A stretch of DNA of 64,000 nt from Ogataea parapolymorpha DL-1 (Eukaryota; Ascomycota; Pichiomycetes; Pichiales; Pichiaceae): assembly GCF_000187245.1 (NCBI RefSeq), contig NC_027866.1, positions 364,411 to 428,410 of the forward strand. The letters run 5' to 3'. The stretch's first letter is position 1; the number at the start of each line of letters is the position of its first letter. A model generated the notes under the pieces. That model did not search any database, was not told the origin of the DNA, and was given only the letters and a program-made list of their open reading frames with translations. Below, piece by piece: positions 15,299 through 59,955 of the stretch. The translations under genes were made by a program, and so were the position numbers.

Positions 15299-18200
15299 AT
15301 GTCTTTCTACGGGTATGACTTTTAATCGTTTTGCGACTAACAACAGTGTTTCAAAAGGCTCAATTAGAGCAAAAGCGCTGGAGAAGCTTGCCTCGCTCTC
15401 TGTGCGGGAGGTGGACGACACCAGCACGCTCGAACAGAGTGTCCCTGACACATTGAAGCGGCTGCTGGGGGCCACCAGGAGCCAGTCCGGCACGCAATTG
15501 GGCAGCAAAAATATCCGCCATTCGGAGTTTGAGGTCCTGCTGGCTCTCTGCAGAAGTTGCGAGCATATCAAGAGCAAGATTCAAGCGGAGATCCTGCTCT
15601 CTAGATTTGAGCTCTACTTAGCGGAATTGGGCACCGACAAATTCTCCTCCAAAAAAACACTTAAGACGTACTTCCCCACGCCCTGGACAAAGCTGTCGTA
15701 TGAATTGGTTGTTGCAATTTCGACTTTGGGCCTAACTTTGCCAACATTGAGGCCTAAGTGTCAGGATTTGATTTTCCAGTTTATTGACAGCTTGCAGTCG
15801 GACTCGGTCGACCTGAGGACTCTATTTTGCTACGTGGGGCTTCTGCAGGGGCTGACCAAGAACATTGCGTTTGTTGGCTCCGATCTTCTGCGGCGGGTGG
15901 TGAGTGTTTTCGACGATGCGTTTTTTCCCCAAGTCGAGTCCTGTATCGGCTCGATTGACGAGCACGTTTATGTGGAGATGGTGAACAACTTTGAGGACTA
16001 TGGCTTTGAGTTTTCATCGCTGTTTTTCATGTTTTTGGTGCAGAAGCTAGCGGTAGAGTTCCTCAAGTGCCAGCTGGGGTGCAAGTCTGAGAAGTCGCTG
16101 GTTTTCCACGTCTTGGCTAGCAACACCAAGGAGCTCCAGAAAAAGCTGGACACATCGCTGCTTAAGGAGCTTGCGCTGACGGCTATTGCCAACAACAAGT
16201 ACGTCAACAACGGCTCAGACAGGCTGGTGACGTCGACGTTTGGCCGCAGAAACGCAGGCTACTCCATCAAGGCGTCCACGATCGAGATACTGGCGTTGGG
16301 CTCGATGCTTTCCGTAGTGGACCTGAACTTTGCCACCGCGCTGATGGACGACTATCTGGAGCAGCTGTACAAGATAGACGGTAACTGCACGAGCGAGGTG
16401 GTGGAGATGATCAACTCTGAGCTGCTCACGAGCATTTTTGCGAGCGCAGCTCTCCTTTCAGCGAAAAAAAGCTTTATTGGTCTCCGTCTCAGCAAGTGTC
16501 TTCCTACGATTTTGTCGCTGCCGGTTCTTAACAGTGAGGCCGTCAGTGAGCTCGCGCAGTCGCTGTCGTTCTGTCTGAAAAACCTGACCGAGGACGACGT
16601 TGTCTCGTGCGTGTACAGTCTCACGAACATCCTGACCGATGCAACAAAGCCCAACAGCGGCACTGTGAGCGGCACGATGGAGCTCAGACCCTCGTTTTCG
16701 CTCTCGTCGACGACCGGGCAGCCTCCATCGACGCTGACCGAGGAAGGCTCGTACTCGCTCGAGGTGCTGCCGCTCGTGTACAGAAACGTGATTGCGGCAG
16801 TTTTGGAAATCGCCAAGGCGTTCAGAGACGAATCTATCAACATCCTGGCCGTGACAATCCTTTTCCAGAAAGTGCGCAGAACGCCAACCGAGCTGAACTG
16901 TCTGCTGCTGCGCGGGCTGACGGGCTTTGTAGACGTGATGGAGGAGCGGGAATTTCTGATTTTGGTGAGACACTTTTTCGACATCTCGACCATTTCCACC
17001 AAGGACAAAGCCTCGTTCTCCCGCATCAGCTCTGTGTGGATCGAGTTTTCCGAAATTATGGCCAAAAGAGCAAACACCAGCCTGTACACTGTATATTTGC
17101 ACGAGATGCTGTCGGCAATCATTTCCAAGGGCGATATTGACGACCTGGAGCACCACCGTTCGAACAACGAGGTGTCGATCTCTGCTTCTGAGATTTCTCT
17201 GTATTTGAAACCACTGGCTTATCTTCTGCCCCCCGTCGACCAGGAGCCACTCATTCCGACCGAAAAAGAGACTGTCGCGTTGTTCAAGGACATGTGGTTC
17301 AACCTGTGCATCCACGGCTACGCGCACAGTTCCGAGCTTCTGGCTGCCAACCACGACAGCCTCTTGCGTGTTGCGCACAACTCGCCGGCCCTGGCGTCGG
17401 AGTCATCGTGGAACCGCACAGAGACAACGATCGACATGAACACGGTGCTTCGCAGAGGCACCTCGAAACACACCGAGAAGCTGCACAAGGACGTGCTGAG
17501 CTCGATTATCACGTCGAAGTCGATCGACGCGAAAGTTTTCGAGACGCAGATCTCGCGGCCCAAGCTGATGTTCCTGGCCTCAAACCTGCTGCTCGAGAGT
17601 CTGCGTGCCGAGTGCGGCAACTGCTCCACGTCGCTGGAGTACCTGTCGGATCCAACCATCTCGATCTCGAATTTGCAGGACTTTTCCGGCTCTATCGCAT
17701 TCTACGTCACGTCGCAGTATTTCCGCCGCGTCCAGAGAGGCGGCTCCTCGTCGTTCACCCCAGCAAAGATCACACGCCAGCTCCAGCAATTGTTCATTTT
17801 CTGCTGCCACAGAGACTTTGCTCTCCAGAACGCAGCGCTGCAGTGCACTGAGCTGCTGATTGTGCGTGCTCCTGTGCTGCTCTGCTACGAGGTATCACTC
17901 TTTTCGCTGCTCGACATTTTGAGTCTGCTCTACGAGAGTGTCATCGACGCAGACACCAACGAGTACGAGCCGCGCATCGAGTTTACCGCGCCGGTGTCCG
18001 GCGTGAAACTGCTGCTCTCTGACTCGTACAAATGGAGACACAAGACGCTTGACCTGCTGACCAGCTCGGCCCGCAAATGGATCACGCTGTGTCTGCTCAA
18101 ATGTCCGCAGGATACCAAGTCGCTGCTGCAATCGTACGTCTCGAAAGTCGATGGCGCGTCCAGGAAAGGGGTCAACTACGGCGTCACGTTAGCCTTGGAA

Positions 18201-20921
18201 ATGGCGGGCAAGGTGATGCCTGCGGACCGCGAGCTGTCGGCCGTTGACGGGCTGTCTGGCCGCCACGTCAACACCACGTCAGCGTTCCTGTCGCAAATCC
18301 CCTGGAAAGCCGGTGGCTACGACTCGCTGCTACGCCTCACCGACCACGAGGCCGCTGGTTTGCGTGCTCTACACATGCACACATTCAAGAAAATGGCCGA
18401 TTTAAGAGCAGCTGTGTCTGCACACCTGCCCGTGGCTCCCAACTCGCTCAGACTCGCGCTCCAGGCGGCCGCGTCGCTGATCATCCGCTCCTCGGACGGC
18501 ATGGGCGACTTGCTGCGGGAGGTGGTGGCAATTCCGTTTGCTATTTTCGACACCGACTCAATCGAGCTCGGTGTCGGTGTGTGGCTAAGCATCATGAAGG
18601 TGCGGTCGGACCTGGCCCCGGTCGTGCTCTCTGAGATATGCCAGCGTCTGGAAGAGTCCATCAAGCTGCAGAAGGGTCTTTACAGCAAACAGTTTGATAT
18701 TCAGAACTCCAAGTACAACAAGATGGAGTATCTGCCAACAAGCAAGGAGCAGATAGACTACAACGGCCGCAGCGCATCAAAAAACATGAAACCACACCTG
18801 TTGCTATTTAGACTGCTAGCGTCGCATTTTGAGGCCACACGGTACCAGAGCAGCCATATTTTGAAGATGTTCACGCGGACGGTGTTAATTTCGCTACTGG
18901 GACTTTCTTTTGCCAGCACGCATCCGTTTGCTCGCACGGCGCGCTTCGAACTCATCAATTTTGCCCTGAGCGTGCTCAAGGTGCACCGTGGTCTCGGAAC
19001 CAGAGACGTGGCCGGGCTCACTTCTGCGATCCTAGACGGCGCGCTCTCGTGGTTTGCTACCAAACACCGTGCTCCTTATGGGAACAACAAAATGAAGATC
19101 CGTGGCGACTTTGGCATCCTTAACATGGCTGCTAAGCTATTCATGGATACGCGGTACCCGGAAAACCCAGTGTTTGAGCGCAAACGCGTGCTTTTGCTGC
19201 TTTTCCTTGACCACGAGATCAGTTTCTTGGCTACATGGCTACATCCGCTGCACCCAGTGGATACCACGGGCTCTTACAGCAGCGTGAAGGTCACGGATCG
19301 TGTTCTGGCGGACGCGTACGCTCTGGACGGCCGTCTGGCCCTGAATTTGGTCGAGCGGTACCGGACGCTCTCGCTGGAGAGACCAATCAGACATTTGATC
19401 CAGAACGACCCGCTCAAAGCTATCGACGATCCGACTGCGCTGCGGCTGTTGCTGGGCAGCGACAACGTCAAGGTGCCGTCGCTAATGGTGCTGTCGACGG
19501 CTGCGTCGCCGTCGGACTCGATCAACCTGTTTCTGCCGCCGTTCAATAGCGACCCGATCATTTTGCAGTATACGATGCGTTCTCTTGAAAGTTTTGATGC
19601 CCACTTGACGTTTTTCTACGTGCCACAGATCGTGCAAGCGCTGCGGTTCGACATGCGGCTGGGCTATGTGCGTCGGTTCATTTTGGAGACGGCCAAGGTG
19701 TCGCAGCTGTTTGCGCACCAGATCATCTGGAACATGGCAGCAAACTCGTACAAAGATGAGGAATCGACGGTGCCGGACGACATCAAGCCCGTGCTGGACG
19801 AGATCCGGTCCACGATGGTGGCCGAGTTCACGCCGCAAGACCGGACGTACTACGAAAAGGAGTTTAAATTTTTCGAGGAGGTGACTGGCATTTCTGGCAA
19901 ACTGAAGCCGTTCATCAAAAGCAGCAAGCCGGAGAAAAAAGCGCAGATCGACAAGCATATGGCGGCCATCAAGGTCGAGGAAGGCGTCTACCTGCCTAGC
20001 AACCCGCAGGGCGTGGTGGTGGACATCAACCGGCAGTCTGGAAAGCCGCTGCAGTCGCACGCCAAGGCCCCGTTCATGGCCACGTTCAAGATCCGCAAGG
20101 AGGTCAGCACCGTCGACGGCGAGAAGAAGCAGCACATCGAGGACCTCAGCGCCATTTTCAAGGTCGGCGACGACTGCAGACAGGACTTGCTTGCGCTGCA
20201 GCTGATGTCGCTGTTCCGGACGATCTGGATGGACGCCGGCCTGGACGTGTTTGTATTCCCGTATCGGGTGACCGCGACGGCGCCCGGCTGCGGCATCATC
20301 GACGTGCTGCCGAACTCGATCTCGCGTGACATGCTTGGCAGAGAGGCCGTCAACGGGCTGTATGAGTACTTTATCAGTCAGCACGGGCCAGAAACCTCGA
20401 TCGAGTTTCAGAAAGCTCGCAACAACTTTGTCAAATCGCTTGCCGCGTACTCCATCATCACGTATTTGCTGGAAATCAAAGACAGACACAACGGAAACAT
20501 CATGTACGACGACCAGGGCCACGTCTTGCACGTCGACTTTGGCTTCTGTTTCGACATCGTTCCCGGCGGCGTCAAGTTCGAACAGTCGCCGTTCAAGCTG
20601 ACGCGCGAGATGGTGCGTGTGATGGGCGGCTCCACAGACACACAGGCGTACAAGTGGTTCGAGGAGCTGTGTGTCAAGTCGTTCTTGGTTTGTCGGCCAT
20701 ACATGGACGCGATCGTCAACATGGTGGTGCCGATGCTGAGCTCGGGGCTGCCGTGCTTCAAGCCTGCTACCATCAAACATTTAACGGCACGGTTCGTGCC
20801 GAAAAAAAGCGACAAGGAAGCGGCCAAGTACATCCGCGGGCTGATCAGAAAATCGTTCGAGTCGCTGGCCACCAAAGGCTACGACGAGTTCCAAAGACTC
20901 ACGAACGGCATCCCGTACTGA
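15299..20921 (+). CDS. STT4: Phosphatidylinositol 4-kinase Stt4 (type III alpha), with a 14-nt first exon
   Basis: Exons 15299-15312 and 15347-20921, 1862 residues (1900 in S. cerevisiae). Splicing out the 34-nt intron gives an N-terminus MSFYG-VSKGSIRAKALEKL, resembling Sc Stt4 (MRFTRG...SLRAKAIGRL). The long helical N-terminal part contains LEHHRSNNEVS and NTVLRRGTS, both conserved. The C-terminal lipid kinase domain has TGISGKLKPFIK, GDDCRQD, the catalytic loop KDRHNGNIMYDD and HVDFGFCFD; the protein ends RLTNGIPY as in Stt4. It makes plasma-membrane PI4P. Retaining the intron would allow an alternative in-frame start at 15315 inside it. Confidence 0.95.
15313..15346 (+). other. STT4: 34-nt spliceosomal intron of STT4
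   Basis: Donor GTATGA at 15313, branch GACTAAC at 15335-15341 (branch A 15340), acceptor ACAACAG ending 15346, 6 nt after the branch A. Removing it joins a 14-nt first exon (ATG TCT TTC TAC GG) in frame to the main ORF. Unspliced, the upstream ATG reads into TAA after eight codons. Confidence 0.85.
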
Positions 20922-20951
20922 GTCGACGTCGCTTCTCATTATTAATACATA

Positions 20952-22367
20952 CTATACACCCCGGCCAAACTCGTAGTCGTCAACGTTGAAGGAGAACTCG
21001 GGCTCCAGGCTGCTTGCGAACTCGCCTGCCTCGTAGTAGAACGAGTCCTTGAACGGCTCCTTGAAGCTCACGTCCAGCGGTTGCCCCACGCCCATGTCCG
21101 GCGAGATCGACGGGCTTGTGTCCATGTACGGCTGGAACTGCGGCGTATCGAGGTCCTGTAGCAGCCTCTGTTCGGTCTTCTCGTCGACTTTGCGCGGACG
21201 GCCTCGTTTGGCGTCCGGCACAGCGCCTGCCACGGGCCGTTGTTTCTTCTTGAACACGCCCTTCTCGTCTGGCAGCGCGCCAATGCATATATTTCTGATC
21301 CGGTGACGCTTTAAAGCGTCCTGTCGTGGGAATTTCTTGCCGCACGGACAAACATGCTTGAATTCCTCGTGGCCCTTGTAGTGTCGTCTGAGATCGTGAT
21401 TTCGCACAAACGCCTTGCCGCACTTGTCGCACATGAACGGCCGGTCAGAGAGATGCGTCTGGATGTGTGCTCTAATGTTGGAAACTCTCGTGAACAGCTT
21501 GCCGCAGTCGTTGTATATGCATTTGAACATGTCGTTTTCGTCGGGCCCGACAAAATGCACGTCGAGCGCACCACGCTCGAGCGTCGAGGTGATGGTTGGT
21601 TTTTTCTTTTTCGTTGGAGACCTGCGCTGTTCCTGGATAATCTGTTCGGAAACGGAGTCTTTTTTAGTGATGAGCGTCGGTGTCCAGCTGAAATGCGCGG
21701 GCTGTTTCTGTGGCGTCGGTGTCTTAATGTCCACAAAGGTGTGTTTTACCTTGATCGGCGTAAACTGAGTATTTGCAGACTTGCTTTCCTTTGGATCTTG
21801 TAGCTGTCTCAGAGTCATGAGTTCTTGGGCAGAATAGCTGCTAGTGGCACGTAGCGGCGTGTACCCAGAGACAGAACCTGCCGTGTCCTGTGGTTTGATT
21901 GGGGTTTCCTGCCTGCTTTCCGGCTTTGGAGGGGGGAACTTGTAGCCGTCGTGCTGACCAGTCACAAAGTAATCTGGTGCAGGTTTGGGTGCTGTCTGCG
22001 AAGAAACGCTGTTTGTAATGTATGTGCTATCAATGTATCGTTCTATTGGCTGGTACAACGGTTTTTTATTCTTAATGTCCACCACGGGGAGCCCAGGGAT
22101 AGCCAGCTGTGTATCGTCGCCAGAGCCCACGTAGCCAAAAATGCCGGAGCCACTGGTCTGTCTCGAGTGTTTCTTCTCAAACTTGGTCTGCTGCTGGCTG
22201 TATCCTTCGGAAATGCCAAGGTCATATAGAATTGAGTCGAGGTCTTCATTTTCTCCGTACACTTCAGGATCGAAGCCAAAATTGTCATCTGGAAGAGGAA
22301 TCGTCTTGAAGTTGGCCGGCAACCCCTGCTGCGAGTCCACAAACGGGTTGTTCATCTGCCAGGCCAT
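20952..22367 (-). CDS. ACE2: Ace2/Swi5-type C2H2 zinc-finger transcription factor
   Basis: 471 residues from the first true ATG (22367); the frame runs further upstream only to a GTG. Three clustered zinc fingers lie in the C-terminal half: CIYNDCGKLFTRVSNIRAHIQTH, MCDKCGKAFVRNHDLRRHYKGH and VCPCGKKFPRQDALKRH-x-C, followed by an AT-hook-like KRGRPRK. That finger order and RGRPRK tail define Ace2/Swi5. In S. cerevisiae Ace2 enters daughter nuclei and switches on cell-separation genes under RAM-network control. Scattered S/T-P sites fit CDK control of localisation. A 21-codon uORF (22352-22417) overlaps the start. Confidence 0.85.
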   Translation of the reverse strand: MAWQMNNPFVDSQQGLPANFKTIPLPDDNFGFDPEVYGENEDLDSILYDLGISEGYSQQQTKFEKKHSRQTSGSGIFGYVGSGDDTQLAIPGLPVVDIKNKKPLYQPIERYIDSTYITNSVSSQTAPKPAPDYFVTGQHDGYKFPPPKPESRQETPIKPQDTAGSVSGYTPLRATSSYSAQELMTLRQLQDPKESKSANTQFTPIKVKHTFVDIKTPTPQKQPAHFSWTPTLITKKDSVSEQIIQEQRRSPTKKKKPTITSTLERGALDVHFVGPDENDMFKCIYNDCGKLFTRVSNIRAHIQTHLSDRPFMCDKCGKAFVRNHDLRRHYKGHEEFKHVCPCGKKFPRQDALKRHRIRNICIGALPDEKGVFKKKQRPVAGAVPDAKRGRPRKVDEKTEQRLLQDLDTPQFQPYMDTSPSISPDMGVGQPLDVSFKEPFKDSFYYEAGEFASSLEPEFSFNVDDYEFGRGV

Positions 22368-22417
22368 TGCTCTAGAATCACAGGTGAAAAGCAACTGATT
22401 AAACTTATCCGGGACAT
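22352..22417 (-). promoter_or_regulatory. uORF overlapping the ACE2 start codon
   Basis: An ATG at 22417 opens a 21-codon frame ending in TGA at 22352, beyond and out of frame with the ACE2 ATG at 22367. It could reduce ACE2 translation, if the transcript starts upstream of it; the leader length is unknown. Confidence 0.35.
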
Positions 22418-22497
22418 GAAATATTATCTTAATGAGTTTCCGCTTTAGGAATGAGGTAAACACCGGGTTGCAATTTTTTTAGGGCTGTGCTCCAGGA

Positions 22498-23442: not shown

Positions 23443-23557
23443 GAACAATGATATATTATATTTATTTTATTTTAATTTTTACAAAGGATAAACCATCTTT
23501 CAACAGTCAGTTGACACTTGAGCTGCAAGTGCGTAGAATAATTTAGTATTTATAAAC

Positions 23558-25262: not shown

Positions 25263-25264
25263 CA

Positions 25265-30109: not shown

Positions 30110-31249
30110 ATGGAAAATAATATTATTTCGAGGAAATTGGATTTTGACACTCTGGTGGTGAAATACCCGCAATTGGGCCCGTATTTCAAGGGGACAAAGT
30201 ACGATTTCCGCAACAATGACGCGGTGATTGCGATCACCGAGGTTTTGTTGAGAGAATGGGGTTTGAAGGTACACATACACAGCGACAGATTATGTCCACG
30301 ATTATTCAATCGTCTCGACTACCTCGAATTCATGCGCAGATTGCTGGGTTCCTGGACAAACCATGTGGGGCTCGACGTTGGGACCGGCCATCTGGCGATC
30401 TATGCGCTGCTGGGAGCCAAACTGTTCGATCTGCAGTTTGTAGGCACAGATATCGACGAGGAGTCGTTGGAGCTGGCTCGGGCCATTGTTGAGCAGAATC
30501 ACTTGCAGGAGAAAATCCAGCTGGTGCTAACTAGACCGCAGGAGCCGCTGTTCAGCCGTTTCGTTGAGTTGCTGGGCTCTCGAAACGGGTTCGTCGTGTG
30601 CAACCCGCCTTTTTATTCTTCTTTTGACGAGATGGAAAGAAGAGCAGAAATAAAGTCCGGCCCCCGATTCCCCACAGCCGCAGCTAACGAGCTCGTTGTC
30701 GAGGGTGGGGAGGTAGCATTTGTGCATCGGATGATTATGGAGAGCGAGGCCGTGAAAAGTTCTTCTATTCGCTGGTTTTCCAGTCTCATTGGAAAATATG
30801 ACTCGCTCAAGCCCCTGATCTCGCTTCTGCGCGCCCGCAAAATCGACAATTATGGCGTGCATGAGTTCCGCAGCAGCCAGGCATTGGCGGGAACACGACG
30901 ATGGATTCTGTTCTGGTCTTTCCAGCCAGAGCGGCCTGATGCAGACCTGTTCAACAGTGTCGTGCATCAGAAAACGCGTCGCGAGCTCCAGTGCACTCCC
31001 GAGAAGCTGCTCGAGCGGATCGATGGGCTGGAAAATGTGGAGCAGACCAGAGAATCCGGCTCAGTCGTTTTAGAGCTGCCGGGCGATGTGTGGTCGCGAG
31101 CGTACCGGCGTCAAAAACGATTCCTGCCAGATCGGGCTCAGGTAGTGTTGCTGCTCGAAAACCCAATCAAGCTCATCTGGAAGAGCGGTCATAACTACCA
31201 GCTTTTCGAAAGCTTCTATAACTGGTGTAAGAAAATAGAGCAGTCCTAG
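30110..31249 (+). CDS. METTL16: METTL16-type RNA N6-adenosine methyltransferase (U6 snRNA)
   Basis: 379 residues. The N-terminal RNA-binding part has LDFDTLVVKYPQLGPYF and the Rossmann methyltransferase follows: GLDVGTGHLAIYALLG (SAM loop), VGTDIDEESL, and the catalytic N-P-P-F in FVVCNPPFYS. Downstream EGGEVAFVHRMI and RWFSSLIGK correspond to the conserved human METTL16 segments. METTL16 and its S. pombe orthologue put m6A in the U6 ACAGA box that pairs with 5' splice sites. S. cerevisiae has no orthologue. The C-terminal vertebrate-specific domain is absent. Its TAG stop shares the bases CTAG with the PSF1 stop. Confidence 0.88.
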   Translation: MENNIISRKLDFDTLVVKYPQLGPYFKGTKYDFRNNDAVIAITEVLLREWGLKVHIHSDRLCPRLFNRLDYLEFMRRLLGSWTNHVGLDVGTGHLAIYALLGAKLFDLQFVGTDIDEESLELARAIVEQNHLQEKIQLVLTRPQEPLFSRFVELLGSRNGFVVCNPPFYSSFDEMERRAEIKSGPRFPTAAANELVVEGGEVAFVHRMIMESEAVKSSSIRWFSSLIGKYDSLKPLISLLRARKIDNYGVHEFRSSQALAGTRRWILFWSFQPERPDADLFNSVVHQKTRRELQCTPEKLLERIDGLENVEQTRESGSVVLELPGDVWSRAYRRQKRFLPDRAQVVLLLENPIKLIWKSGHNYQLFESFYNWCKKIEQS

Positions 31250-36191: not shown

Positions 36192-37469
36192 TTATTTTCC
36201 CAACTCAACAACCTTCTCAGCGGCCTCGTCAAGGTCCTCGAACAAGTACAACTTCAAGCCGGACTCGCTGATAAGTTTCTTGGCGATGTCGAGGTTGGTA
36301 CCTTGCAATCTAACAACGACAGGAATGGTCAAAGACAGGTTCTTGGTGGCAGCAATCAGACCCTCGGCGACGTAGTCACATCTGACAATACCTCCGAAGA
36401 TGTTGACGAAGATGGCCTTGACACCCTTCTCGGAGATAATCAGCTTGAAAGCCTCCTCAATGGTCTCTGGAGTGGCAGTTCCACCAACATCGAGGAAGTT
36501 GGCTGGAGATCCACCGTACAACTGAACAACATCCATAGTAGCCATGGCCAATCCAGCACCATTGACCAAGCAGCCGATGTTGCCGTCCAACTTGATGAAG
36601 TTCAGGCCAAACTTGCTGGCATGGACCTCGTCTGGGTCCTCTTGGGTCAGATCTCTCCAAGAGAAGACCTCCTCTTGTCTGAAGGCAGCGTTGTCGTCAA
36701 ATCCGAACTTGGCATCCATGCACATCACCTCGTGGTCGACCGTTTCCGTCAATGGGTTGATCTCGATCTGGGTGGCATCTTTGTCCTTGAAAATCTGGTA
36801 CAGTTTTTTGATGGTTTCGGCAGCCTTTGGAACGGCCTCTGGAGAGAATTTAAGTCCAGAGGCAATTTGCTTGGCCAGCTCGTCGCTAATGCCTTGGTTG
36901 TAGTCCACAGGGTACTTCTTGATGGCGTCAGGGTTCTCCTTGGCAACACCCTCAATATCCACACCACCCTCCGACGAGGCCACCACCAAAGTGGACTGGT
37001 TTTTTCTGTCCATAATAATAGACAGGTAAGCCTCACGCTTGGCGTATTTTCTCTCCACAACGTAGACGGCAGTAACCTCCTTCCCGGCAGCACCAGTCTG
37101 TTTGGTGATCAGCTTGTGACCAATCATTTTGGAAGCGAGGTCCTTTGCCTCCTCTGGGGTCTCAATGAGTCTGACACCTGACTTCAAGCCATTGTCAAAG
37201 TGGCCCTTACCTCTGCCTCCCGTCAGAGCCTGGGCTTTGATGACCAGCTCTTTAGTGCCGAGCGACTTGGCGATCTCGTAGGCGCCCTCTGGAGTGGTAG
37301 CCGCATCTCCCTTAGGCACGGGCACACCGTATGATCTGAGCAACTGAGCAGATCTGTACTCATGGATGGACAAAAATCTTCTTTGCGACTGACGCGTTAG
37401 AATAACGATGTCTGACGTGGACACACTTACAGTCTTCAAAATGGACTTTCTCAATGCTCTGGTAAACAT
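36192..37469 (-). CDS. LSC2: Succinate-CoA ligase beta subunit, mitochondrial
   Basis: 425 residues from the ATG at 37469 (MFTRALRKS), giving a basic presequence; an upstream in-frame codon at 37499 is not needed. Order: ATP-grasp domain beginning FLSIHEYRSAQLLRSYGVPVPKG, nucleotide-binding VIKAQALTGGRGKGHF, EINPLTE for Mg2+, and the C-terminal CoA-ligase domain with NGAGLAMATMDVV, NFLDVGGTA and FVNIFGGIVRCD. It completes the step after KGD2, making succinate and ATP. Divergent from the NEJ1-like gene across 185 bp that hold an inverted repeat and an 18-bp palindrome. Confidence 0.97.
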   Translation of the reverse strand: MFTRALRKSILKTVSVSTSDIVILTRQSQRRFLSIHEYRSAQLLRSYGVPVPKGDAATTPEGAYEIAKSLGTKELVIKAQALTGGRGKGHFDNGLKSGVRLIETPEEAKDLASKMIGHKLITKQTGAAGKEVTAVYVVERKYAKREAYLSIIMDRKNQSTLVVASSEGGVDIEGVAKENPDAIKKYPVDYNQGISDELAKQIASGLKFSPEAVPKAAETIKKLYQIFKDKDATQIEINPLTETVDHEVMCMDAKFGFDDNAAFRQEEVFSWRDLTQEDPDEVHASKFGLNFIKLDGNIGCLVNGAGLAMATMDVVQLYGGSPANFLDVGGTATPETIEEAFKLIISEKGVKAIFVNIFGGIVRCDYVAEGLIAATKNLSLTIPVVVRLQGTNLDIAKKLISESGLKLYLFEDLDEAAEKVVELGK

Positions 37470-49096: not shown

Positions 49097-50464
49097 TTAG
49101 AAGGTTTTAAATAACAAAGTCACCACACACACTGCGATAAGAGCCAGAGACGCGTTGCATGCAAACTGCTCTCTCCACAATTTCTTGGCCACATCGGCGT
49201 CCTTGCGGATCTTAGTTTGGGCCAGCTCCGAGTACACGGTCTTGCGTGGCTCGAGGCCCTTTGGCAGATGGCTTGGGTTAGGGTTGAGCTCCTCGATAAA
49301 CTGTTCGAGCTCGCCGCATTTCATTCCGATCTCGAGATACAGCGGATCAGAAACCGGACACTTGTGATGAATCACCCTGAGGTATCTGGAAAACACGTTG
49401 AGCACGCCTTCGTAGGTTCTGCATTCGAGGATCAAGCTGCACGTTTCTCCTTTTCTGATCTTGACGTTTTTCTGGAACACGTACGGGTTCTGGAACACTA
49501 GGGCCAGCGTAGCAATAGCCATCACCTGCGGAATCGCACAGAAACAGTATGTGGAGTGGTCGTAGACCATCGAAAGGTATACCAGGACGTCTTTGACGTG
49601 GTCCAGAACGTTGAGCACGAGCTCAGAGCTACAGTTCAGGGCCTCCTGGAGATGCTCTGGCTGCGCAAAATTGGCGAGCTTGTCTGTGTGCTTGGCCCAG
49701 ATCTCCTTCGGCCAGAATGACCGTCCGTCATCCAGGTCCTCGCGGAAGTCTCTGATGATATTTGTTTTTTGCAGGAAAAGACCCATGGAGTCGCTAAGGT
49801 ACATTTTGTCGGCCAGATCAGGGTGTCCAAAGTCTGCTGCTGCAATCATCCGCGTGAGCCCTTCTCCCACCAGTCCTGCCACGTAGTGACAGTACAGGTC
49901 GTAGTCCTTCACGGTGGCCACGCCGTTGAAATTAAACTCCTCGTTCACCACGTAATCAGCCATGCCGTTACCCATCTTACGCGTAACGTCCTTGATGATG
50001 TCCTGGTATTTTGGCTGCAGCTTATGATACTCGGTCAGAATACTATCAAAGTTGACCAGAACGATACGATCTTTTTCATTCGGCCCGCTCCCGTGGAATG
50101 TCCAGTCCTTGAGATTCAGCTTCGAGTCGAAAGTTCTCAACATAGGAATTTTCAGCTCAGGGTCGAGCGTCATGTCGTCCTCGATCGTGTCGAGCGCCCG
50201 CAGAACCAGGTAGAAAAGCATGACGACATTGCGTAGCTCGGGATTTAATTCCATGATCACAGCGACAAAAGAACGCGAACAGTGAGCCAGCATCTTGTAA
50301 CACAGGGCCTCGGACGGAGTCTGCGACTTGGGATCCAGTGGGTTTTCGACGTGTCTGAAAAATTTGCTATACGGGTTAGTGGACAGATAGCAGGAAGTAT
50401 CTTACAATTGCACAACGGCCTTCAGCTCGGCTGGGTGGAGCACGAGATCTAAGAGTTTACCCAT
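49097..50464 (-). CDS. ERG9: Squalene synthase, with a 39-nt intron
   Basis: Exons 50406-50464 and 49097-50366 give 442 residues (444 in S. cerevisiae). Exon 1 supplies MGKLLDLVLHPAELKAVVQ, absent from the uninterrupted frame, and joins to FKFFRHVENP. Motifs: SRSFVAVI, FYLVLRALDTIEDDM (first Asp-rich motif), YCHYVAGLVGEGL, FLQKTNIIRDFREDLDDGRSFWP (second), and a C-terminal membrane anchor. The enzyme condenses two farnesyl diphosphates into squalene at the ER. A second in-frame acceptor 12 nt downstream would remove FKFF(R). Confidence 0.95.
50367..50405 (-). other. ERG9: 39-nt spliceosomal intron of ERG9
   Basis: Donor GTAAGA at 50405, branch CACTAAC (50381-50375, branch A 50376), acceptor TATAG ending 50367, 9 nt after the branch A. 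A second acceptor (TTTCAG, ending 50355) is also in frame. Unspliced, the frame meets TAA at the donor. Confidence 0.9.
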
Positions 50465-52321: not shown

Positions 52322-52462
52322 GAACTGTGTAGACGGACGAGACAGCTCTGTAGGGGCGATGTATGTTGGTGCACCGTAGAAACCTACTCCCGCCGCAGAC
52401 CCCCTCCTAGCACCTCAAATTTGACGATCACAAAAATTTACTGGTTTGTGTTTTTGTGCACG

Positions 52463-53596: not shown

Positions 53597-53647
53597 TCCA
53601 CGAAAATTTGTACATTAAACATAAATTTATATCGTTTGCCACTAGAC

Positions 53648-53977
53648 ATGTCAGAATTGAAAATTCAAACCATTGCTCCAGGAGACGGCAAGACATACCC
53701 TCAACCAGGTGATCTGGTGACGGTCCACTACACGGGCACTCTGGAGAACGGCAAAAAGTTCGACTCCTCGAGAGATAGAAACAAGCCTTTCCAGTTCAGA
53801 ATTGGCCAGGGTATGGTGATTGCTGGCTGGGAACAAGGGTTCTCCAAGCTGTCGCTGGGTGAGAAGGCCATTCTGACGATCCCAGGCCCATTGGCTTACG
53901 GTTCCAGAGGCTTCCCAGGCCTGATTCCTCCTAATGCCACTCTCATCTTTGATGTTGAGCTGTTGAAGATCAACTAG
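53648..53977 (+). CDS. FPR1: FKBP12-type peptidyl-prolyl isomerase
   Basis: 109 residues from the ATG at 53648, a single FKBP domain: [40 protein letters not shown] and [20 protein letters not shown]. The rapamycin/FK506-pocket residues (Tyr of HYTG, Asp of FDSS, Phe, Trp of AGWE, the Y of LAYG, final FDVELL) are all present, so this should be the rapamycin-binding Fpr1. Cytosolic proline isomerase. Codons are the preferred set. Convergent with the TRAPPC11-like gene 35 bp away. Confidence 0.97.
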
Positions 53978-54012
53978 GTACTTAATGGATTTGCGAGTCT
54001 ATTTTCCGTATA

Positions 54013-57000
54013 TTACTTGCGCACATACAGACCATCTGTGCGCGCCTGCAGCCGTTCACTCGTTGGTTGCGCGTTCAGGTAGATCTTGTAGTTCAGGTCG
54101 TAGATGCGGAACTCTGGTAGCTTGGTCCACTCCTCGCCGGCCAGCTGCTCGTACTCCAGCCGCACGACCTGTTTCATGAACGGCAGCACCGAGAAGTTGT
54201 GCTGGTTTCTGTAATTTCTGATTTTGAAGTTCTCGCTCGTCGACAGCGTCGTGCTGAACTGGAAAATCCGCGACGTAGGGTTTTCGATGACGTACGTCAC
54301 GTGAAGCGCGTCTTCGGCGTCGTCGACGCTGACCAGCGTTCGCGGGTCCATGTGTGGCAGCGTGCCCTTCCAAAGGAGTACTTTGTATTCGTTTGTCAAA
54401 CTTTGCGGCCGCCCAAGCAAAACGTACTCAAAAGACAGATACAGCTCGAGCGCCATCGACCGTTTGAACACTCCGTCCGCGCATCGGCACCGGAACTCGA
54501 ACCAGCCGTCGCCAGTGCTTTTTGCGCTCAGCTGCGACACAGGGATGTCGGTTAACGTCGTCTCCATGACAGTTTCCGGCGTCGTTTTGTTGATCTCCAC
54601 GGAAACGTTGGAAATGGCCACGTCCTCGGCAGAAACATTCTCGATACTCAGCTTCGAGCGCCAGCAGCGGTCATGTGACGGCACAGCAACGATATCTGCC
54701 GCACTCACGTCGAACAGTGACGGAATGTGCGACGCCAGCGACGGATAGATCTTGAAACTCGTCTTAAACAAGTCGACGACCGGGATCTGCAGAGGCTTGG
54801 TTTTGCGAACCACGGTGTTCTCGTTATTGTCGATGAGATAGTCGATCTGAAGGTCGATTTTCACCGTGTCACCGTTCGTTTCTGCTAGCGGAAGATACGC
54901 AAACAATTCGACGTCTGTGGAATCCTGTGGCCTCAGAGGTTCAGGAACACGGTAATTAGTGCTGTGAGCTGCTTCGTCGGCCCACGTGACCTTCAGAGAC
55001 GTCGTGGCAAGTTTTCCGGTGGCATGAAGTCGCAGACCAAAAGTATTTTCGTCCTGATTGCCGACGTGGACTGTAATTGGCACTTTTTCTCCCTTGTACG
55101 CGATGCTGGCGTGGCTGACGCGGAAATCGACCTCTGGCGGCTTCGGAATCACCTCGAACCCGTTCTGTGCTCCATTGACAATTTCGTACTCGAACGGCTT
55201 GTTAAATCTTGAGGAGGACGCCCTGTACCATTTTAGTCGGTCTCGCGACTCGCACACCGACACCAGCTGGTTCTCAAACGAAAGGGGGCCAGAACGCAAC
55301 ACTAGACGCACACCGTCTACCGTGAACTTGCCGATTTTGTCCGGGTGAAGCTCGAATTGCAACACTTTGGCCTGTTTGTCAGAGAAGTCCAGGTTTGCGC
55401 GGCCGTCCGCGACAATATTGAACGGCGTGTTCGGCCCAGCGTCGTTCTCGACGGCAATCTCGAACTCCTCTCCAGCAAAGGCGATATCCACGCGCTCCAC
55501 AATAAGCTCCGACATCAAACTGTTCACCAGCGGGCGCAGATACAGCTGGAAATGCACTTTTTCGTGGAGCGAGACCGACCGGTGTTTGAAAACCACCTGA
55601 CTCTCGAACAGCGGCTCCTTCAGCACAAGAGGCTCGTCGATCGGCACTTCCTGCGCAAGCTCGTCTCTGAACTGCGCCACAAACCGGTCTTCGAGCGTGC
55701 AAAGCTGCAGCCGGTGAACTTGTGCGTCCCTATAATTTTCCAGCTTCACACAGCATTGGAACAGCCTGAACAAAATAGCGGCTACGATCTTGTTCCATTT
55801 TTCATTCTTGAACACAGAAAGAGCCACCAGGAAGTTATTTGCGGCCATCGAGTAGTTGTCCATACCAAAATATTCCTCTCCCAGCTGGAAATACACGTAC
55901 GACTCGCTCCTGTTAAACTTCGTCTTTTTCGCTTTCGTGAACAGCTCCAGCGCGCGCGACAGCAGGCGGACGCGTGTCCCATGGTAATCAAACTGCTTTT
56001 CCTCGTCTGGACTCAAAGCCATGTACGTGTCGTAGACGTCGACGCCGCTGGCTGCCTGAATCTCGCGTCGGTGGACCAAAGAGCACGCCTGCAAATATAT
56101 GTATCCTCCGTGTGGCATGGGCAGTCCGTCGGCAGCATTGCCAAACCATTTGGACGACGAGTGCTGCTGAAAAGGCCGTTCAATAGGAACAATTGATTCT
56201 GGACACTTCTCGACCAGTTGCGCAAGCCAGGTCAACTGTAGAGCGATCCAGGAAATCACGGGATACGATTTCAAAGAGCGAGGCGGCAGCACAGATAGAA
56301 TGTTCTGCAGATGGATGTCAAACTTCTTGTACGCCATATTGGCATTCTCCAGCACAAGATACCCGCGTGTTATGTGTATGCCGGCAAAATCCAGCAACAA
56401 GCGACATTCCTGCCATCTTTCTGGCTGTGTCTCAAGACTTATGCTGCGTATCACGTCGATGAGCTTCTCGTAAGAGTATTCCATCAATTTCGTGCTCTGT
56501 TCGGTGACACCTTTCAACTCGCCTAGAACTGCACTTTTTAGCGCCTGTCTCGCAAGCCAGAATTTTTCGTTGTACGAGGTGTCCATGAGCTGCTGCTTCT
56601 TTACCTTTTTTTCCTGCGCAGCGTAATATTCTATGCACCACGGCCGGATCAGCGCCATTAGCACGCCAGCAAATGACTCCAGCTCCTTCTGGCTGCCTGC
56701 CGGGAGCACGAGAATGCCCGTTTTTGAGGGCAGACTCGTTGTTTTGCGCAGAGTGGCTACTCTTTCCTCCAGTTCCGGGGTGCTGGGAGACGAACAGAGC
56801 AGCAGACAAACAAACTTGATTCCGTGCTTGGCCAGCTTCTCACGGGTATCGTTGAGCTCCAACGCTAGTGTTTTATCGTTTTCGTCCGACTCGGCGTCCA
56901 ATTCGTGCACGGCAATAAATACAGACGGCAGCAGTTCTCTGTATTTCTGGATCCATTCCAGGGGCAGAATTGATCTGTAGCAAGGAGAGTCTGGGTTGAA

Positions 57001-57423
57001 TGGTGAGATGGGCGAAGTACTAGCAGACTCGTCGGACGCGGCACTGTGGTCGTCATCGGTCCGTTCGGCGTGGTTGGGCAACAGGAACGTTGATCCAGCA
57101 AATTTAAACTTAAAAGAGAGATGCTTTTTGTCATCGTTTTTGTACCAGTATTCTGACTCGAGAGAGTGATCTTTCAGCACATGCGCCAGTTCCAGCCCGG
57201 ACGCAACCTGCACCGTCGGCAATCTGCGCTCAATGGTGTCGGGATCTGACAACAGTCTGCTCAACGGATTATCTGGAGAGTTTGCATCGTGCAGCCGTAT
57301 CTGCTTGTCTTTGGGGAACTCTGGGGTGCTAGTCTGTTTGAACAAAAGTTTATCCTCCCCCAGACCCTGCACCACCACCAGTGGCGCCAGCATTGAGGTA
57401 ATTTCTGGAGGATATCGGAACAT
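54013..57423 (-). CDS. TRAPPC11: TRAPPC11-type (foie gras/gryzun) TRAPP complex subunit
   Basis: 1136 residues. Start MFRYPPEITSMLAPLVVVQGL is the fungal TRAPPC11 opening. The foie-gras domain occupies ~150-480, with LLPSVFIAVHELDAE, FVCLLLCSSP, LIRPWCIEYYAAQEKKVKKQQ, YNEKFWLARQALKSAVLGELKG and helical hairpins; the beta-rich gryzun part and a C-terminal FRIYDLNYKIYLNAQPTSE follow. TRAPPC11 joins the TRAPPIII complex of animals and many fungi, serving ER-Golgi and autophagic traffic; S. cerevisiae has no clear orthologue. TRS130 is the main alternative but fits the N-terminus less well. Confidence 0.72.
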   Translation of the reverse strand: MFRYPPEITSMLAPLVVVQGLGEDKLLFKQTSTPEFPKDKQIRLHDANSPDNPLSRLLSDPDTIERRLPTVQVASGLELAHVLKDHSLESEYWYKNDDKKHLSFKFKFAGSTFLLPNHAERTDDDHSAASDESASTSPISPFNPDSPCYRSILPLEWIQKYRELLPSVFIAVHELDAESDENDKTLALELNDTREKLAKHGIKFVCLLLCSSPSTPELEERVATLRKTTSLPSKTGILVLPAGSQKELESFAGVLMALIRPWCIEYYAAQEKKVKKQQLMDTSYNEKFWLARQALKSAVLGELKGVTEQSTKLMEYSYEKLIDVIRSISLETQPERWQECRLLLDFAGIHITRGYLVLENANMAYKKFDIHLQNILSVLPPRSLKSYPVISWIALQLTWLAQLVEKCPESIVPIERPFQQHSSSKWFGNAADGLPMPHGGYIYLQACSLVHRREIQAASGVDVYDTYMALSPDEEKQFDYHGTRVRLLSRALELFTKAKKTKFNRSESYVYFQLGEEYFGMDNYSMAANNFLVALSVFKNEKWNKIVAAILFRLFQCCVKLENYRDAQVHRLQLCTLEDRFVAQFRDELAQEVPIDEPLVLKEPLFESQVVFKHRSVSLHEKVHFQLYLRPLVNSLMSELIVERVDIAFAGEEFEIAVENDAGPNTPFNIVADGRANLDFSDKQAKVLQFELHPDKIGKFTVDGVRLVLRSGPLSFENQLVSVCESRDRLKWYRASSSRFNKPFEYEIVNGAQNGFEVIPKPPEVDFRVSHASIAYKGEKVPITVHVGNQDENTFGLRLHATGKLATTSLKVTWADEAAHSTNYRVPEPLRPQDSTDVELFAYLPLAETNGDTVKIDLQIDYLIDNNENTVVRKTKPLQIPVVDLFKTSFKIYPSLASHIPSLFDVSAADIVAVPSHDRCWRSKLSIENVSAEDVAISNVSVEINKTTPETVMETTLTDIPVSQLSAKSTGDGWFEFRCRCADGVFKRSMALELYLSFEYVLLGRPQSLTNEYKVLLWKGTLPHMDPRTLVSVDDAEDALHVTYVIENPTSRIFQFSTTLSTSENFKIRNYRNQHNFSVLPFMKQVVRLEYEQLAGEEWTKLPEFRIYDLNYKIYLNAQPTSERLQARTDGLYVRK

Positions 57424-57549
57424 TGATAATAATTACCAAATAATAAATTTTATTGTTTTATTTATTCGCTTGCTGCCCCAGACGTTGAGCAAGAGTTTGC
57501 TTGCTCTACAACCTTCTTTACCAATTATTATTTATCTCTTCTTTTCAAG

Positions 57550-58541
57550 ATGGCTACGAACGTGACTCAGGTACGTAATTGACTGTCTAGAAGCACTAAC
57601 ATCAGCAATTCACCAACTTCCAAGGCAGACTATCAGAAGGGGTTTCCTACAACCCGGATAACAACTCCCTAAGCTGGGTGGATATCATCGAGGGCAAAAT
57701 CCACAGAGCCTTCCTGGACAACCCAGACAAGGTGGAGGAGTACAAAGTGAGCGCCAGCGTGGGCGTCATTGCGTTTACTGAAGACCCAGACATCTACGTC
57801 TGTGGTGTAGAAGATGGCATTGGCCAGTATAACTTGAAGACCAAGCAATTCAAGTACATGGCCAAGTACCCGGAAAAGGAGCACTTCAAAAAAGCGGTGC
57901 CATTGCGCTCGAATGAGGGCGCCATTGACTCCGAGGGCAACTTCTGGATCGGCACGTTCTGCGACTTTGTCGCAGAAAAGCCAAACCAAGCTACCTTCTA
58001 CAAATTTTTGAAGGACGACTGGGAACATCCTAAAATCATCAAGGACAACGTCACGTGCCCGAACGGACTGAACTGGCATGACGATATCATGTATTGGACA
58101 GACACCGAAAAGGGCATCTACAAGTACAAATTTGACAAAAGCACCGGCCTGCCTGATCTGAGCACAGAAACTCTGTTTCTCCCTGTTTCCAAGATCAGAT
58201 CGCTGATCGGCATCATGGGCGAGCTCGGTCCCGACGGCTCGTGCATCGACGCCTCAGGAAATCTGTATGTTGCATTGTGGGGAGGTGCGAGCGTCATCAA
58301 GGTCAACCCCGAGGGAGACATCGTGCACAGATGGACTTTCCCTGCGCAGAGAGTCAGCTGTGTCACATTGGGCGGCCCGGACCTCAACGAGATGTTTGTC
58401 ACCACCGCAGACCTCAATCTTGACAATCCTGACAAGCTGAGATCTGTTCCTCTGGACGAGGGTGGTAAACTCTTCCACATCAAGCTGACCGGGGTCAAGG
58501 GTGTTCCTAAGAACAAATTCAAAGGCAAGCTGATTGTTTAA
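57550..58541 (+). CDS. SMP-30/regucalcin/gluconolactonase-family protein, with a 35-nt intron
   Basis: Exons 57550-57570 and 57606-58541 give 318 residues. The first exon encodes MATNVTQ; exon 2 starts FTNFQGRLSEGVSYNPDNN, restoring the first blade that the uninterrupted frame lacks. Six-bladed propeller markers: Glu in LSEGVSY, SWVDIIEGKIHR, Asn in GAIDSEGNFWIGTF, Asn in CPNGLNW, and Asp in DGSCIDASGNLYVALW, which together match the divalent-metal ligands. Probable sugar lactonase, substrate unknown. No targeting signal. Its stop abuts the HIT1 stop with no base between. Confidence 0.85.
57571..57605 (+). other. 35-nt spliceosomal intron of the SMP-30-like gene
   Basis: Donor GTACGT at 57571, branch CACTAAC at 57594-57600 (branch A 57599), acceptor ATCAG ending 57605, 6 nt after the branch A. 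Unspliced, TGA follows after three codons. Confidence 0.9.
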
Positions 58542-59004
58542 TTATAACACAGGGTTGTCATTCTCATTATCAAGCAAATTCAACACCAGGTTGCAGAACT
58601 CGTCGAATGCGGCGTTCTGTTCGAGCCCTTTATTGCGTAGATTGCTGATTTTGCGTGTAGCTATTTCTGTCCGTCCCTCTGTATTGTACTCCTGTGTTAT
58701 CGACACGTCGTTGAGAATCTCGTTGATTATTCGTATGTTGAGCTGTATCACGGGCTCTTTCAAGTACTGCACAAACTCTGGCGAGTCCAACAGCTTCTGG
58801 AGCTCCGGATCATCCACCTTGGGCAGATGCTTTAGAGGCTTCAGCTGGGGCGCTGTTGTTGTCTCTGGATCCTGGTGTTTTTCGGATTTGTAACATTTAA
58901 GCGAGCAGCTGTGTGTTAGCAAAAGATCTTTGCACTTACTATTTGAGTCCACAGCGGGGGCATTTGTATTTGAACGGGGCCTCGTTGCAGATCTGACAAG
59001 ACAT
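58542..59004 (-). CDS. HIT1: Hit1-type HIT zinc-finger protein (box C/D snoRNP assembly), with a 31-nt intron
   Basis: Exons 58940-59004 and 58542-58908 give 143 residues (164 in S. cerevisiae). Splicing rebuilds a full zf-HIT domain: exon 1 gives CQICNEAPFKYKCPRCGLKY and exon 2 CSLKCYKSEKHQD, so Cys 3, 6, 15, 18, 24 and 28 line up as in Hit1/ZNHIT3. The exon junction falls in the Tyr before CSLKC. C-terminal part is helical (LQKLLDSPEFVQYLKEP, FDEFCNLVLNLL), the Rsa1-binding region in Hit1. It works with Rsa1 and R2TP in snoRNP assembly. Confidence 0.9.
58909..58939 (-). other. HIT1: 31-nt spliceosomal intron of HIT1
   Basis: Donor GTAAGT at 58939, branch TGCTAAC, acceptor ACACAG ending 58909, 6 nt after the last C of the branch site. 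The donor itself makes an in-frame TAG if unspliced (AAA TAG). It is the shortest intron in the window. Confidence 0.9.
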
Positions 59005-59039
59005 TGTAGAAATATTTTTTTAGACTTTTTTCTTAATTT

Positions 59040-59588
59040 ATGGGGTTATTGAAGGGCTATGAATCAGACGAGGACGAGAGCGATCGGAACGAGGAAAAAG
59101 TAAGTGCAGGCCAAAAAGTGAACAAAGTGGACTCTGGACGAGTCCAGAAGCCGCTGGTGCACAAATCGTCGCTCGCCAAGCTGGATCTTGGCAAGGTGTT
59201 GGGTATCCAGCAGATCGCAAAGCTTGAGGTGGCGGAAAATCGCATCGATGTGGACCAATTGCGAGTTGCGGGGGAATTACAGGAAAGTAGTGAGGACGAA
59301 GGTGCACAGGAGATAGAGCCCAGGCCAGTTGACGGATCAGACTCGTCGAAGATGGTGGAGTTCGACATGGCCAAATTCTATGCCGAAAATCAAAAACTTA
59401 TCAGTTCCGGCAAGCTCGACCACAAGAATATCGTTCTACAGAACTCGCGTGCCACATATTACGGTGTCGGGAACAATAACCTGTCAAACGTGATCAGTTT
59501 TACGGAGAAAAACAGCGACAAGATTCAGCGCCAAATCGAGTCCGACAGGCGGAAAATGGCCGCAAAGGGCAGGCGTGGTGACAGATAG
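59040..59588 (+). CDS. PRCC-family (MAD2B-interacting domain) nuclear protein
   Basis: 182 residues. Start MGLLKGYESDEDES, an acidic/basic disordered middle, and a C-terminal block MVEFDMAKFYAENQKLISSGKL, then NNLSNVISFTEKNSDKIQRQIESDRRK, which is the arrangement of PRCC-type splicing-associated proteins ('F-x-x-x-x-F-Y-x-x-N', then 'H/N-x-L-x-x-L-I'). Human PRCC associates with the spliceosome. No S. cerevisiae counterpart is known to me. The start codon is 35 bp from that of HIT1. Confidence 0.5.
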   Translation: MGLLKGYESDEDESDRNEEKVSAGQKVNKVDSGRVQKPLVHKSSLAKLDLGKVLGIQQIAKLEVAENRIDVDQLRVAGELQESSEDEGAQEIEPRPVDGSDSSKMVEFDMAKFYAENQKLISSGKLDHKNIVLQNSRATYYGVGNNNLSNVISFTEKNSDKIQRQIESDRRKMAAKGRRGDR

Positions 59589-59645
59589 AGCGTACTTGAC
59601 GATTAAATAATATTTCTATGTACAGTTAAACGTTTCGCAATCATC

Positions 59646-59955
59646 CTATTTGTTGTGGGTGGCCTCATACTCCTTTTTCAGCTCTGCAAGTTGCTCGTCA
59701 CTGATTGGTGGAATAGGAATATCTTCAAAGTCGTCCTTCATCAGGAACGAGTATGTGTATAGGTAGACTCCGCCAGAGATGCCAGCAAGCACGCCGAACA
59801 GAGCCAGGTTTTTCCAGAAGTATGGCTGTCTGGCGCGCAGCATGGCAGGCGACATCTGGTATGTGTACTTATTGTAGTATGATGAGCCGCGACTGGATGT
59901 TAGCATGGATAAGGATCAGAAATACGTACTTGAATCTTGCCAAAGAAGAACGCAT
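59646..59955 (-). CDS. COA3: Coa3 cytochrome c oxidase assembly factor, with a 37-nt intron
   Basis: Exons 59930-59955 and 59646-59892 give 90 residues (85 in S. cerevisiae). Exon 1 encodes MRSSLARFN. Landmarks: [18 protein letters not shown], one membrane span ([19 protein letters not shown]), then [24 protein letters not shown], matching Coa3. It is an inner-membrane protein that with Cox14 holds newly made Cox1 and controls Mss51. The uninterrupted frame would start at an ATG lying within the branch site (MLTSSRG...). Confidence 0.92.
59893..59929 (-). other. COA3: 37-nt spliceosomal intron of COA3
   Basis: Donor GTACGT at 59929, branch TGCTAAC (branch A 59900), acceptor ATCCAG ending 59893, 7 nt after the branch A. 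The branch sequence reads ATGCTAAC, so it also contains an ATG in frame with exon 2. Confidence 0.85.

What the first reader, a model, noticed from the sequence alone, without database searches (positions are those of the whole stretch)
15313..59929. Five spliceosomal introns of only 31-39 nt with one shared architecture
Introns in STT4 (34 nt), ERG9 (39), the SMP-30-like gene (35), HIT1 (31) and COA3 (37) all have GTA(A/C/T)G donors, a branch site ending CTAAC (CACTAAC, GACTAAC or TGCTAAC) and an AG 6-9 nt after the branch A. All lie within the first 70 nt of coding sequence. Each restores a family-conserved N-terminus, and four create a stop codon within four codons of the donor if retained. 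S. cerevisiae introns are about 50 nt or more with a longer branch-to-acceptor distance, so this would sit near the lower limit for fungal spliceosomes.
Basis: partly seen in the sequence, partly recalled or inferred. Interest (0 to 1): 0.85.

Follow-up and report, generated by a model that had tools for sequence, protein, structure and literature searches.

The report
Very short introns standard in Ogataea
This stretch of yeast DNA carries unusually short introns, about 31 to 39 letters long, and they turn out to be the usual size for this yeast rather than oddities, which makes it a practical organism for asking how small an intron a cell can still splice.

Summary
All five introns are at the stated places with the stated signals. 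Five of the six strict matches in the window join an early ATG to a long frame that breaks if the intron is kept; 4.2% of 2579 GT...YAG spans of that length do so. The sixth match, 42 nt, in a succinyl-CoA ligase beta gene, stays open if retained.

The window is chromosome 1 of Ogataea parapolymorpha DL-1.

The introns are not exceptional there. GTAAGT...CTAAC...YAG spans of 17-52 nt number 218 genome-wide against 33 for the reversed pattern; longer spans show no excess (20 against 31 at 48-83 nt, 17 against 32 at 79-114 nt). Among 99 listed matches the median length is 35 nt and the donor-to-branch distance 23-41 nt, median 27.

HIT1's 31-nt intron is already in the deposited protein. For STT4 and COA3, database records start inside the intron; homologues favour splicing for STT4, and COA3 stays open.

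These are ordinary U2-type introns at an unusual standard size. No RNA evidence was available.

The parts
15313..15346 (+). 34-nt intron of the STT4-like PI 4-kinase gene; start codon at 15299, exon 2 from 15347
   Evidence: Spliced start MSFYGVSKGSIRAKALEKL aligns without gap to MDFIGIPRGAIRGKALEKL of [Candida] arabinofermentans; the unspliced reading carries a 6-residue insert. Caveat: an ATG at 15315 inside the donor opens an 1868-aa unspliced frame, and the O. polymorpha and O. haglerorum protein records start with the matching unspliced reading (their DNA was not seen).
37389..37430 (-). probable 42-nt intron (sixth, not in the finding) of a succinyl-CoA ligase beta gene; start codon at 37469
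   Evidence: GTAAGT, CTAAC, CAG, but the length is a multiple of 3 and the frame stays open if retained (411 versus 425 aa). Gene by Pfam and PDB matches. The site lies before the part that aligns to solved chains, so homology cannot decide.
50367..50405 (-). 39-nt intron of ERG9 (squalene synthase); start codon at 50464
   Evidence: stop one codon after the donor if retained; next Met only at codon 44. PDB squalene synthase 7wgh aligns at query 5-87, across the junction near residue 20; exon 2 alone hits SQS_PSY.
57571..57605 (+). 35-nt intron of an SMP-30/gluconolactonase-like gene; start codon at 57550
   Evidence: exon 2 has no in-frame Met until codon 92; stop after 3 codons if retained; the SGL domain begins at residue 16, in exon 2, after the junction at residue 7.
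58909..58939 (-). 31-nt intron of HIT1 (zf-HIT); start codon at 59004
   Evidence: The junction lies inside the zinc finger, which scores over the Pfam cut-off and aligns to PDB 2n95 Protein HIT1 across it. Deposited HPODL_05089 equals the spliced prediction over 143 of 143 residues.
59893..59929 (-). 37-nt candidate intron of COA3; start codon at 59955
   Evidence: spliced 90 aa with the Coa3_cc domain, all of it in exon 2. Caveat: an ATG inside the intron opens an unspliced 86-aa frame, and database protein P0002 is that reading (its sources are not shown by the tool).

Best explanation
These are genuine U2-type spliceosomal introns of Ogataea parapolymorpha. They are removed by a normal major spliceosome that uses a GTAAGT-like donor, a strict CTAAC branch element pairing with U2, and a YAG 5-10 nt beyond the branch A. 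In this yeast the usual short-class intron has shrunk to roughly 30-42 nt, so the donor and the branch site nearly abut (median 27 nt). Shown: the signals, the length distribution, frame rescue, one deposited spliced model, and matches for U2, U6, U2AF1, Slu7, Prp18 and a METTL16-like gene. Inferred: that all six are spliced in cells; that U2AF1 recognition goes with the short, fixed branch-to-AG spacing; and that the pre-catalytic complex tolerates a donor-to-branch span far below the roughly 50 nt minimum reported for human spliceosomes.
For: Five of six window matches pass the frame test against 4.2% of spans. Genome-wide 218 versus 33 at 17-52 nt, no excess at 48-83 or 79-114 nt; GTAYGT donors 69 versus 36. 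Of 99 tabulated sequences (100 listed of 218), lengths 30-50, median 35, 91 of 99 within 30-42; 87 of 99 end 6-8 nt after the branch A. HIT1 deposited model equals the spliced prediction and its zinc finger spans the junction. ERG9 alignment crosses the junction. The STT4 N-terminus aligns ungapped to [Candida] arabinofermentans only when spliced. U2 match with GTAGTA, U6, U2AF1 at E 8e-51 to U2AF 23 kDa subunit, Slu7, Prp18.
Against: No RNA reads, cDNA or lariat data were available. COA3 and STT4 can be read unspliced from an ATG inside the intron, and database proteins do so. The 42-nt sixth match stays open if retained. About 15% of the genome-wide matches could be chance by the control (33 of 218), and 218 counts alternative acceptors of one site separately. 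The looser pattern was not enriched (406 versus 528 control), and in 264 kb the strict donor gave 8 matches against 6 for the best permuted branch motif and 7 for the best permuted donor. Of 12 further candidate rows in fetched loci 5 rescue a frame, 2 are open either way and 5 have no frame support.
Confidence: 0.92

Rival explanations
1. Some of the six are not introns: COA3 and perhaps STT4 are translated from the ATG inside the supposed intron, and the succinyl-CoA ligase stretch is coding.
For: P0002 for COA3 begins MLTSSRGSS at the ATG inside the intron. O. polymorpha and O. haglerorum STT4 records begin with the reading that starts at the ATG inside the donor. The ligase frame is open when retained.
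Against: All three have the donor, CTAAC and YAG (the STT4 donor is GTATGA, the weakest). For STT4, [Candida] arabinofermentans and Brettanomyces nanus lack the extra residues. The intron-read residues differ more than the rest from O. haglerorum (5 of 10 versus 14 of 189, P 0.0009) but not significantly from O. polymorpha (2 of 10 versus 12 of 189, P 0.15). An upstream ATG would be met first and give an 8-aa (STT4) or 28-aa (COA3) product.
Confidence: 0.2
2. The shared architecture is chance matching of short motifs near gene starts.
For: The loose pattern GTANG..CTAAC..AG is not enriched over the reversed pattern (406 versus 528). In 264 kb the strict donor pattern gave 8 matches, barely above the best permuted branch motif (6) and the best permuted donor (7).
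Against: Genome-wide strict counts 218 versus 33, confined to short spans, the frame test, and the junction-spanning homology of HIT1 and ERG9.
Confidence: 0.03
3. Retention of these introns is regulatory: retained transcripts are switched off by early stops, or give a second N-terminus where the intron contains an ATG.
For: Ravin 2013 reports 94 retained-intron events in this strain (PMC3866509, passages). Four of five introns give a stop within four codons, and STT4 and COA3 have internal ATGs in the exon 2 frame.
Against: No expression data here, and none of these genes was named in the passages seen (the supplement was not read). In-intron stops and ATGs also occur by chance.
Confidence: 0.15

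Closest known systems
Introns of intron-poor budding yeasts with fixed branch-to-AG distance (Debaryomyces hansenii, Eremothecium gossypii; Irimia and Roy 2008)
   Same: ACTAAC-type branch element and branch-to-AG mostly 6-8 or 6-9 nt (PMC2483917, passages and section 10).
   Different: Here the donor-to-branch part is also compressed, giving a median total of 35 nt. [quoted passage not shown]
Annotated introns of Hansenula polymorpha DL1 (Ravin 2013)
   Same: Same strain and assembly; 457 intron-containing genes; HIT1's 31-nt intron is in the deposited protein.
   Different: Mean intron length is given as 65 nt. The passages and section seen do not state that a 30-42 nt class dominates; the supplements were not available.
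Introns of Pichia kudriavzevii, another yeast of the methylotroph clade
   Same: Budding-yeast U2-type introns, 205 of them, found with RNA-seq (PMC6053246, passages).
   Different: That paper reports an S. cerevisiae-like consensus and a branch-to-AG distance longer than in S. cerevisiae; here it is short and fixed.
Ultra-short introns of ciliates, Bigelowiella nucleomorph and Trichomonas
   Same: Introns of a few dozen nt or fewer (PMC12316389 and PMC5014332, passages).
   Different: Those reach 15-25 nt, shorter than here; this is a free-living yeast used as a laboratory and production host (abstract of PMC3866509).
Human short introns needing Smu1 and RED (Keiper 2019)
   Same: The limiting quantity is the donor-to-branch span (PMC6692369, discussion part 1 of 2 read).
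   Different: The human minimum is about 50-52 nt; here 99 tabulated spans are 23-41 nt. A RED_N search found nothing, but by the tool's own statement this does not show absence; Smu1 was not searched.

Membership tests
U2-type (major) spliceosomal intron | GT donor of the GTRNGT kind and YAG acceptor | tested here: met
   All six have GTANG and YAG; STT4 and ERG9 depart at donor position 6 (A).
U2-type (major) spliceosomal intron | Branch element complementary to the U2 snRNA of the same genome | tested here: met
   CTAAC in all six; one U2 match in the genome, with GTAGTA.
U2-type (major) spliceosomal intron | Removal restores a reading frame with homologous protein across the junction | tested here: met
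   HIT1, ERG9 and STT4 shown; SMP-30 partial; COA3 and the 42-nt case not decided.
U2-type (major) spliceosomal intron | Spliced RNA observed | not testable with these tools
   No reads held; only indirect support from the deposited HIT1 model.
U12-type (minor) intron | RTATCCTT donor and TTCCTTAAC branch element | tested here: not met
   None of the six sequences has either; motifs recalled, compared by eye.
Intron class with constrained branch-to-AG distance and U2AF1 retained | Narrow branch-to-AG distance | tested here: met
   87 of 99 tabulated sequences end 6-8 nt after the branch A; the search pattern itself limited this to 5-10.
Intron class with constrained branch-to-AG distance and U2AF1 retained | U2AF1 (U2AF35/23) gene present | tested here: met
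   L040:800-1399, 199 aa, E 8e-51 to a chain named U2AF 23 kDa subunit.

The most novel reading that the evidence does not exclude
In Ogataea the splicing system has been re-dimensioned. Donor-to-branch spans of 23-30 nt are the standard substrate (78 of 99 tabulated), although the extended U6-donor (17 nt) and U2-branch (14 nt) helices described for the human B complex would together use more intron than those spans hold. Its pre-catalytic spliceosome must therefore hold U2 and the tri-snRNP closer together or use shorter helices, and intron length itself has become a recognition feature, so that strict-signal spans of 48-114 nt show no excess over control.
Probability: 0.35. Interest if true: 0.7.

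Novelty: new variant of a known kind. Interest (0 to 1): 0.48.

Why it matters
A genetically workable yeast whose usual short-class intron is about 35 nt makes a structural question testable: how close can a 5' splice site and a branch site be before the spliceosome can no longer activate, and which parts set the limit. It also warns that protein databases hold N-termini of Ogataea genes read through short introns (STT4 of O. polymorpha and O. haglerorum; possibly COA3), which matters for expression work and comparative genomics.

Tried and rejected
Loose genome pattern GTANG..CTAAC..AG: not enriched over its reversed control (406 versus 528), so the strict donor was used instead. Motif permutation in 264 kb was too small to be decisive (8 real; best permuted branch 6, best permuted donor 7). 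The idea that the reference annotation misses all introns under 39 nt was rejected for HIT1. The idea that Slu7 or Prp18 might be lost because branch-to-AG is short was rejected: both have matches. A RED_N search found nothing, but the tool says this does not show absence. The match at 12104-12125 ends in GAG and lies in a ClpB-like frame, so taken as chance. A wider frame-tested scan of the window (donor to 500 nt) gave 11 rows: ERG9, SMP-30 and HIT1, and 8 CTGAY spans of 45-483 nt of uncertain meaning. STT4, COA3 and the ligase are absent from it because of its donor, 100-aa and retained-frame limits. A PDB search with the SMP-30 start found nothing, and Pfam found nothing in the STT4 start. 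Two papers wanted were not held: the yeast MATa1 minimum-distance paper and Bon 2003; Neuveglise 2011 is known to me only through citations. Among the titles and abstract starts listed I saw none about intron size in Ogataea other than Ravin 2013, but listings were capped and most subscription papers are not held, so this does not show that the size class is unpublished. One O. polymorpha paper looked into had no mention of introns.

Full report
What the window is. The contig that holds the window is 955,766 bases. That equals 297,310 + 7,737 + 650,519 plus 200, the three chromosome 1 contigs of Hansenula polymorpha DL1 in Ravin 2013 (PMC3866509, section 5 read). The HIT1 protein of the window is recorded as HPODL_05089 of Ogataea parapolymorpha DL-1. 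The organism is therefore O. parapolymorpha DL-1.

The observation. All five introns are present with the stated lengths, signals and places. A sixth strict match of 42 nt lies in a succinyl-CoA ligase beta gene at 37389-37430 (-), named by Pfam and PDB matches. Donor-to-branch-A distances are 27 (STT4), 29 (ERG9), 28 (SMP-30), 23 (HIT1), 29 (COA3) and 33 nt (ligase).

Chance. I asked how often a span joins an ATG within 70 nt to at least 80 codons while the retained form ends within 30 codons. All GT...YAG spans of 31-42 nt in the window pass in 108 of 2579 cases; 200,000 random sites pass in 8,258. Of the strict matches 5 of 6 pass, the ligase one failing. Across 29 permutations of the branch motif there were 27 sites and 3 passes. 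P for 5 or more of 6 is 7.5e-7. The thresholds were chosen after seeing the five introns, so that P is optimistic.

Homology, gene by gene. HIT1: the zf-HIT finger spans the junction (Pfam 44.6 bits against a 24.7 cut-off) and aligns through it to PDB 2n95, Protein HIT1. The deposited protein equals the spliced prediction over 143 of 143 residues. ERG9: a squalene synthase chain (7wgh) aligns from residue 5 to 87, across the junction near residue 20; the other nine PDB rows start after the junction. SMP-30: the domain starts at residue 16, in exon 2, and exon 2 has no Met before codon 92, so the intron supplies the start. A PDB search with its first 90 residues found nothing.

STT4 needs care. 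An ATG inside the donor (15315) opens an unspliced frame of 1868 aa. Protein records of O. polymorpha and O. haglerorum start with the matching reading; their DNA was not seen. Yet the spliced start MSFYGVSKGSIRAKALEKL aligns without gap to [Candida] arabinofermentans MDFIGIPRGAIRGKALEKL, and Brettanomyces nanus also lacks the six extra residues that only unspliced readings carry. The intron-read residues differ from O. haglerorum in 5 of 10 places against 14 of 189 downstream (P 0.0009); against O. polymorpha it is 2 of 10 against 12 of 189 (P 0.15, not significant). I take STT4 as spliced and the two records as probable misannotations.

COA3 is open. Database protein P0002 starts at an ATG inside the candidate intron; the tool does not show its sources, so it may be a mechanical prediction. 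Homologue N-termini vary too much to decide, although the spliced form has as many residues (21) before the conserved [18 protein letters not shown] stretch as the Pachysolen record P0005 (counted by eye). The ligase match is open when retained and lies before the aligned part of the protein, so it is probable only.

Genome scale. The strict pattern GTAAGT...CTAAC...YAG gives 218 matches at 17-52 nt against 33 for the reversed pattern. At 48-83 nt it gives 20 against 31 and at 79-114 nt 17 against 32. With GTAYGT donors it gives 69 against 36 at 17-52 nt. Alternative acceptors of one site are counted apart. So roughly 200 introns of this kind are shorter than about 50 nt, and strict-signal spans of 48-114 nt show no excess. 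Longer introns were not tested. Of the 100 places listed I tabulated 99: lengths 30-50 (median 35; 91 of 99 within 30-42), donor to branch A 23-41 (median 27; 78 of 99 at 30 or less), branch A to end 5-10, with 87 of 99 at 6-8. The pattern's spacing limits cut the last distribution. Ravin 2013 gives a mean intron length of 65 nt and 457 intron-containing genes, so longer introns must exist too. In 264 kb alone the strict donor pattern was not clearly above permuted motifs.

Other fetched loci. Outside the window, 12 candidate rows were examined. Five rescue a frame: a 30-nt one in a gene with a HIG_1_N domain, 31-, 33- and 35-nt ones in Smr, WD40 and Arf-like genes, and a 33-nt one not searched further. 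In these four the family domain lies in exon 2, so they support the frame, not the junction itself. Two rows are open either way, and five have no frame support (one of these is an alternative donor of a supported site).

Machinery. One U2 match with GTAGTA, U6, Slu7, Prp18 and a clear U2AF1 are present. A review links retained U2AF1 with short branch-to-AG distance (PMC5499181, passages), which fits. A gene of the METTL16 family (Pfam Methyltransf_10, which also rings in bacteria; the METTL16 label is recalled) lies in the window itself. METTL16 loss goes with +4 U donors in budding yeasts (PMC10581693, passages), and here +4 A exceeds +4 C and T together (+4 G not counted).

How it most likely works. 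The major spliceosome removes these introns by intron definition, with strong donor, branch and spacing signals compensating for minimal length. In the human B complex a 17-nt U6-donor helix, a 14-nt U2-branch helix and a gap worth about 21 nt call for roughly 52 nt between donor and branch (PMC6692369, discussion part 1 of 2 read). The Ogataea introns have about half of that. This comparison is inference from a human structure, but it makes a direct prediction: the Ogataea complex must differ in helix length or in the U2 to tri-snRNP distance.

Comparison with the known. Fixed branch-to-AG spacing in intron-poor yeasts is known (PMC2483917, section 10 read), while Pichia kudriavzevii, also of the methylotroph clade, has a longer one (PMC6053246, passages). 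Introns far shorter than these are known outside fungi. HIT1's intron is already annotated. What I did not find stated in the sources seen is that about 35 nt is the standard short size for this yeast; ten searches of a partial library cannot prove that it is unpublished.

Verdict. Observation confirmed, interpretation supported, with two of the five cases (STT4, COA3) less secure than claimed.

Noticed in passing
window 30110-31249 (+): METTL16-family RNA methyltransferase (PF05971, E 8e-43), the only genome match of that family. Its presence fits the +4 A donor preference seen genome-wide.
   Followed up: partly
window 15299-15315 and 59893-59955; protein records P0002, P0029, P0030: Unspliced N-termini starting inside short introns occur in protein records for STT4 in two other Ogataea species and in a COA3 database cluster, suggesting under-annotation of short introns with an internal ATG.
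   Followed up: partly
window 58909-59004: The HIT1 query (first 90 residues) found only the DL-1 record (1 of 1 candidates), so HIT1 may be missing, wrongly modelled or too different in other Ogataea annotations.
   Followed up: no
window 12104-12125 (+): Match to the loose intron pattern inside a ClpB-like chaperone frame, ending in GAG; taken as chance.
   Followed up: yes
L041, 563-592: 30-nt strict match whose length is a multiple of 3 and whose frame stays open when retained, so it may be coding and no intron.
   Followed up: partly
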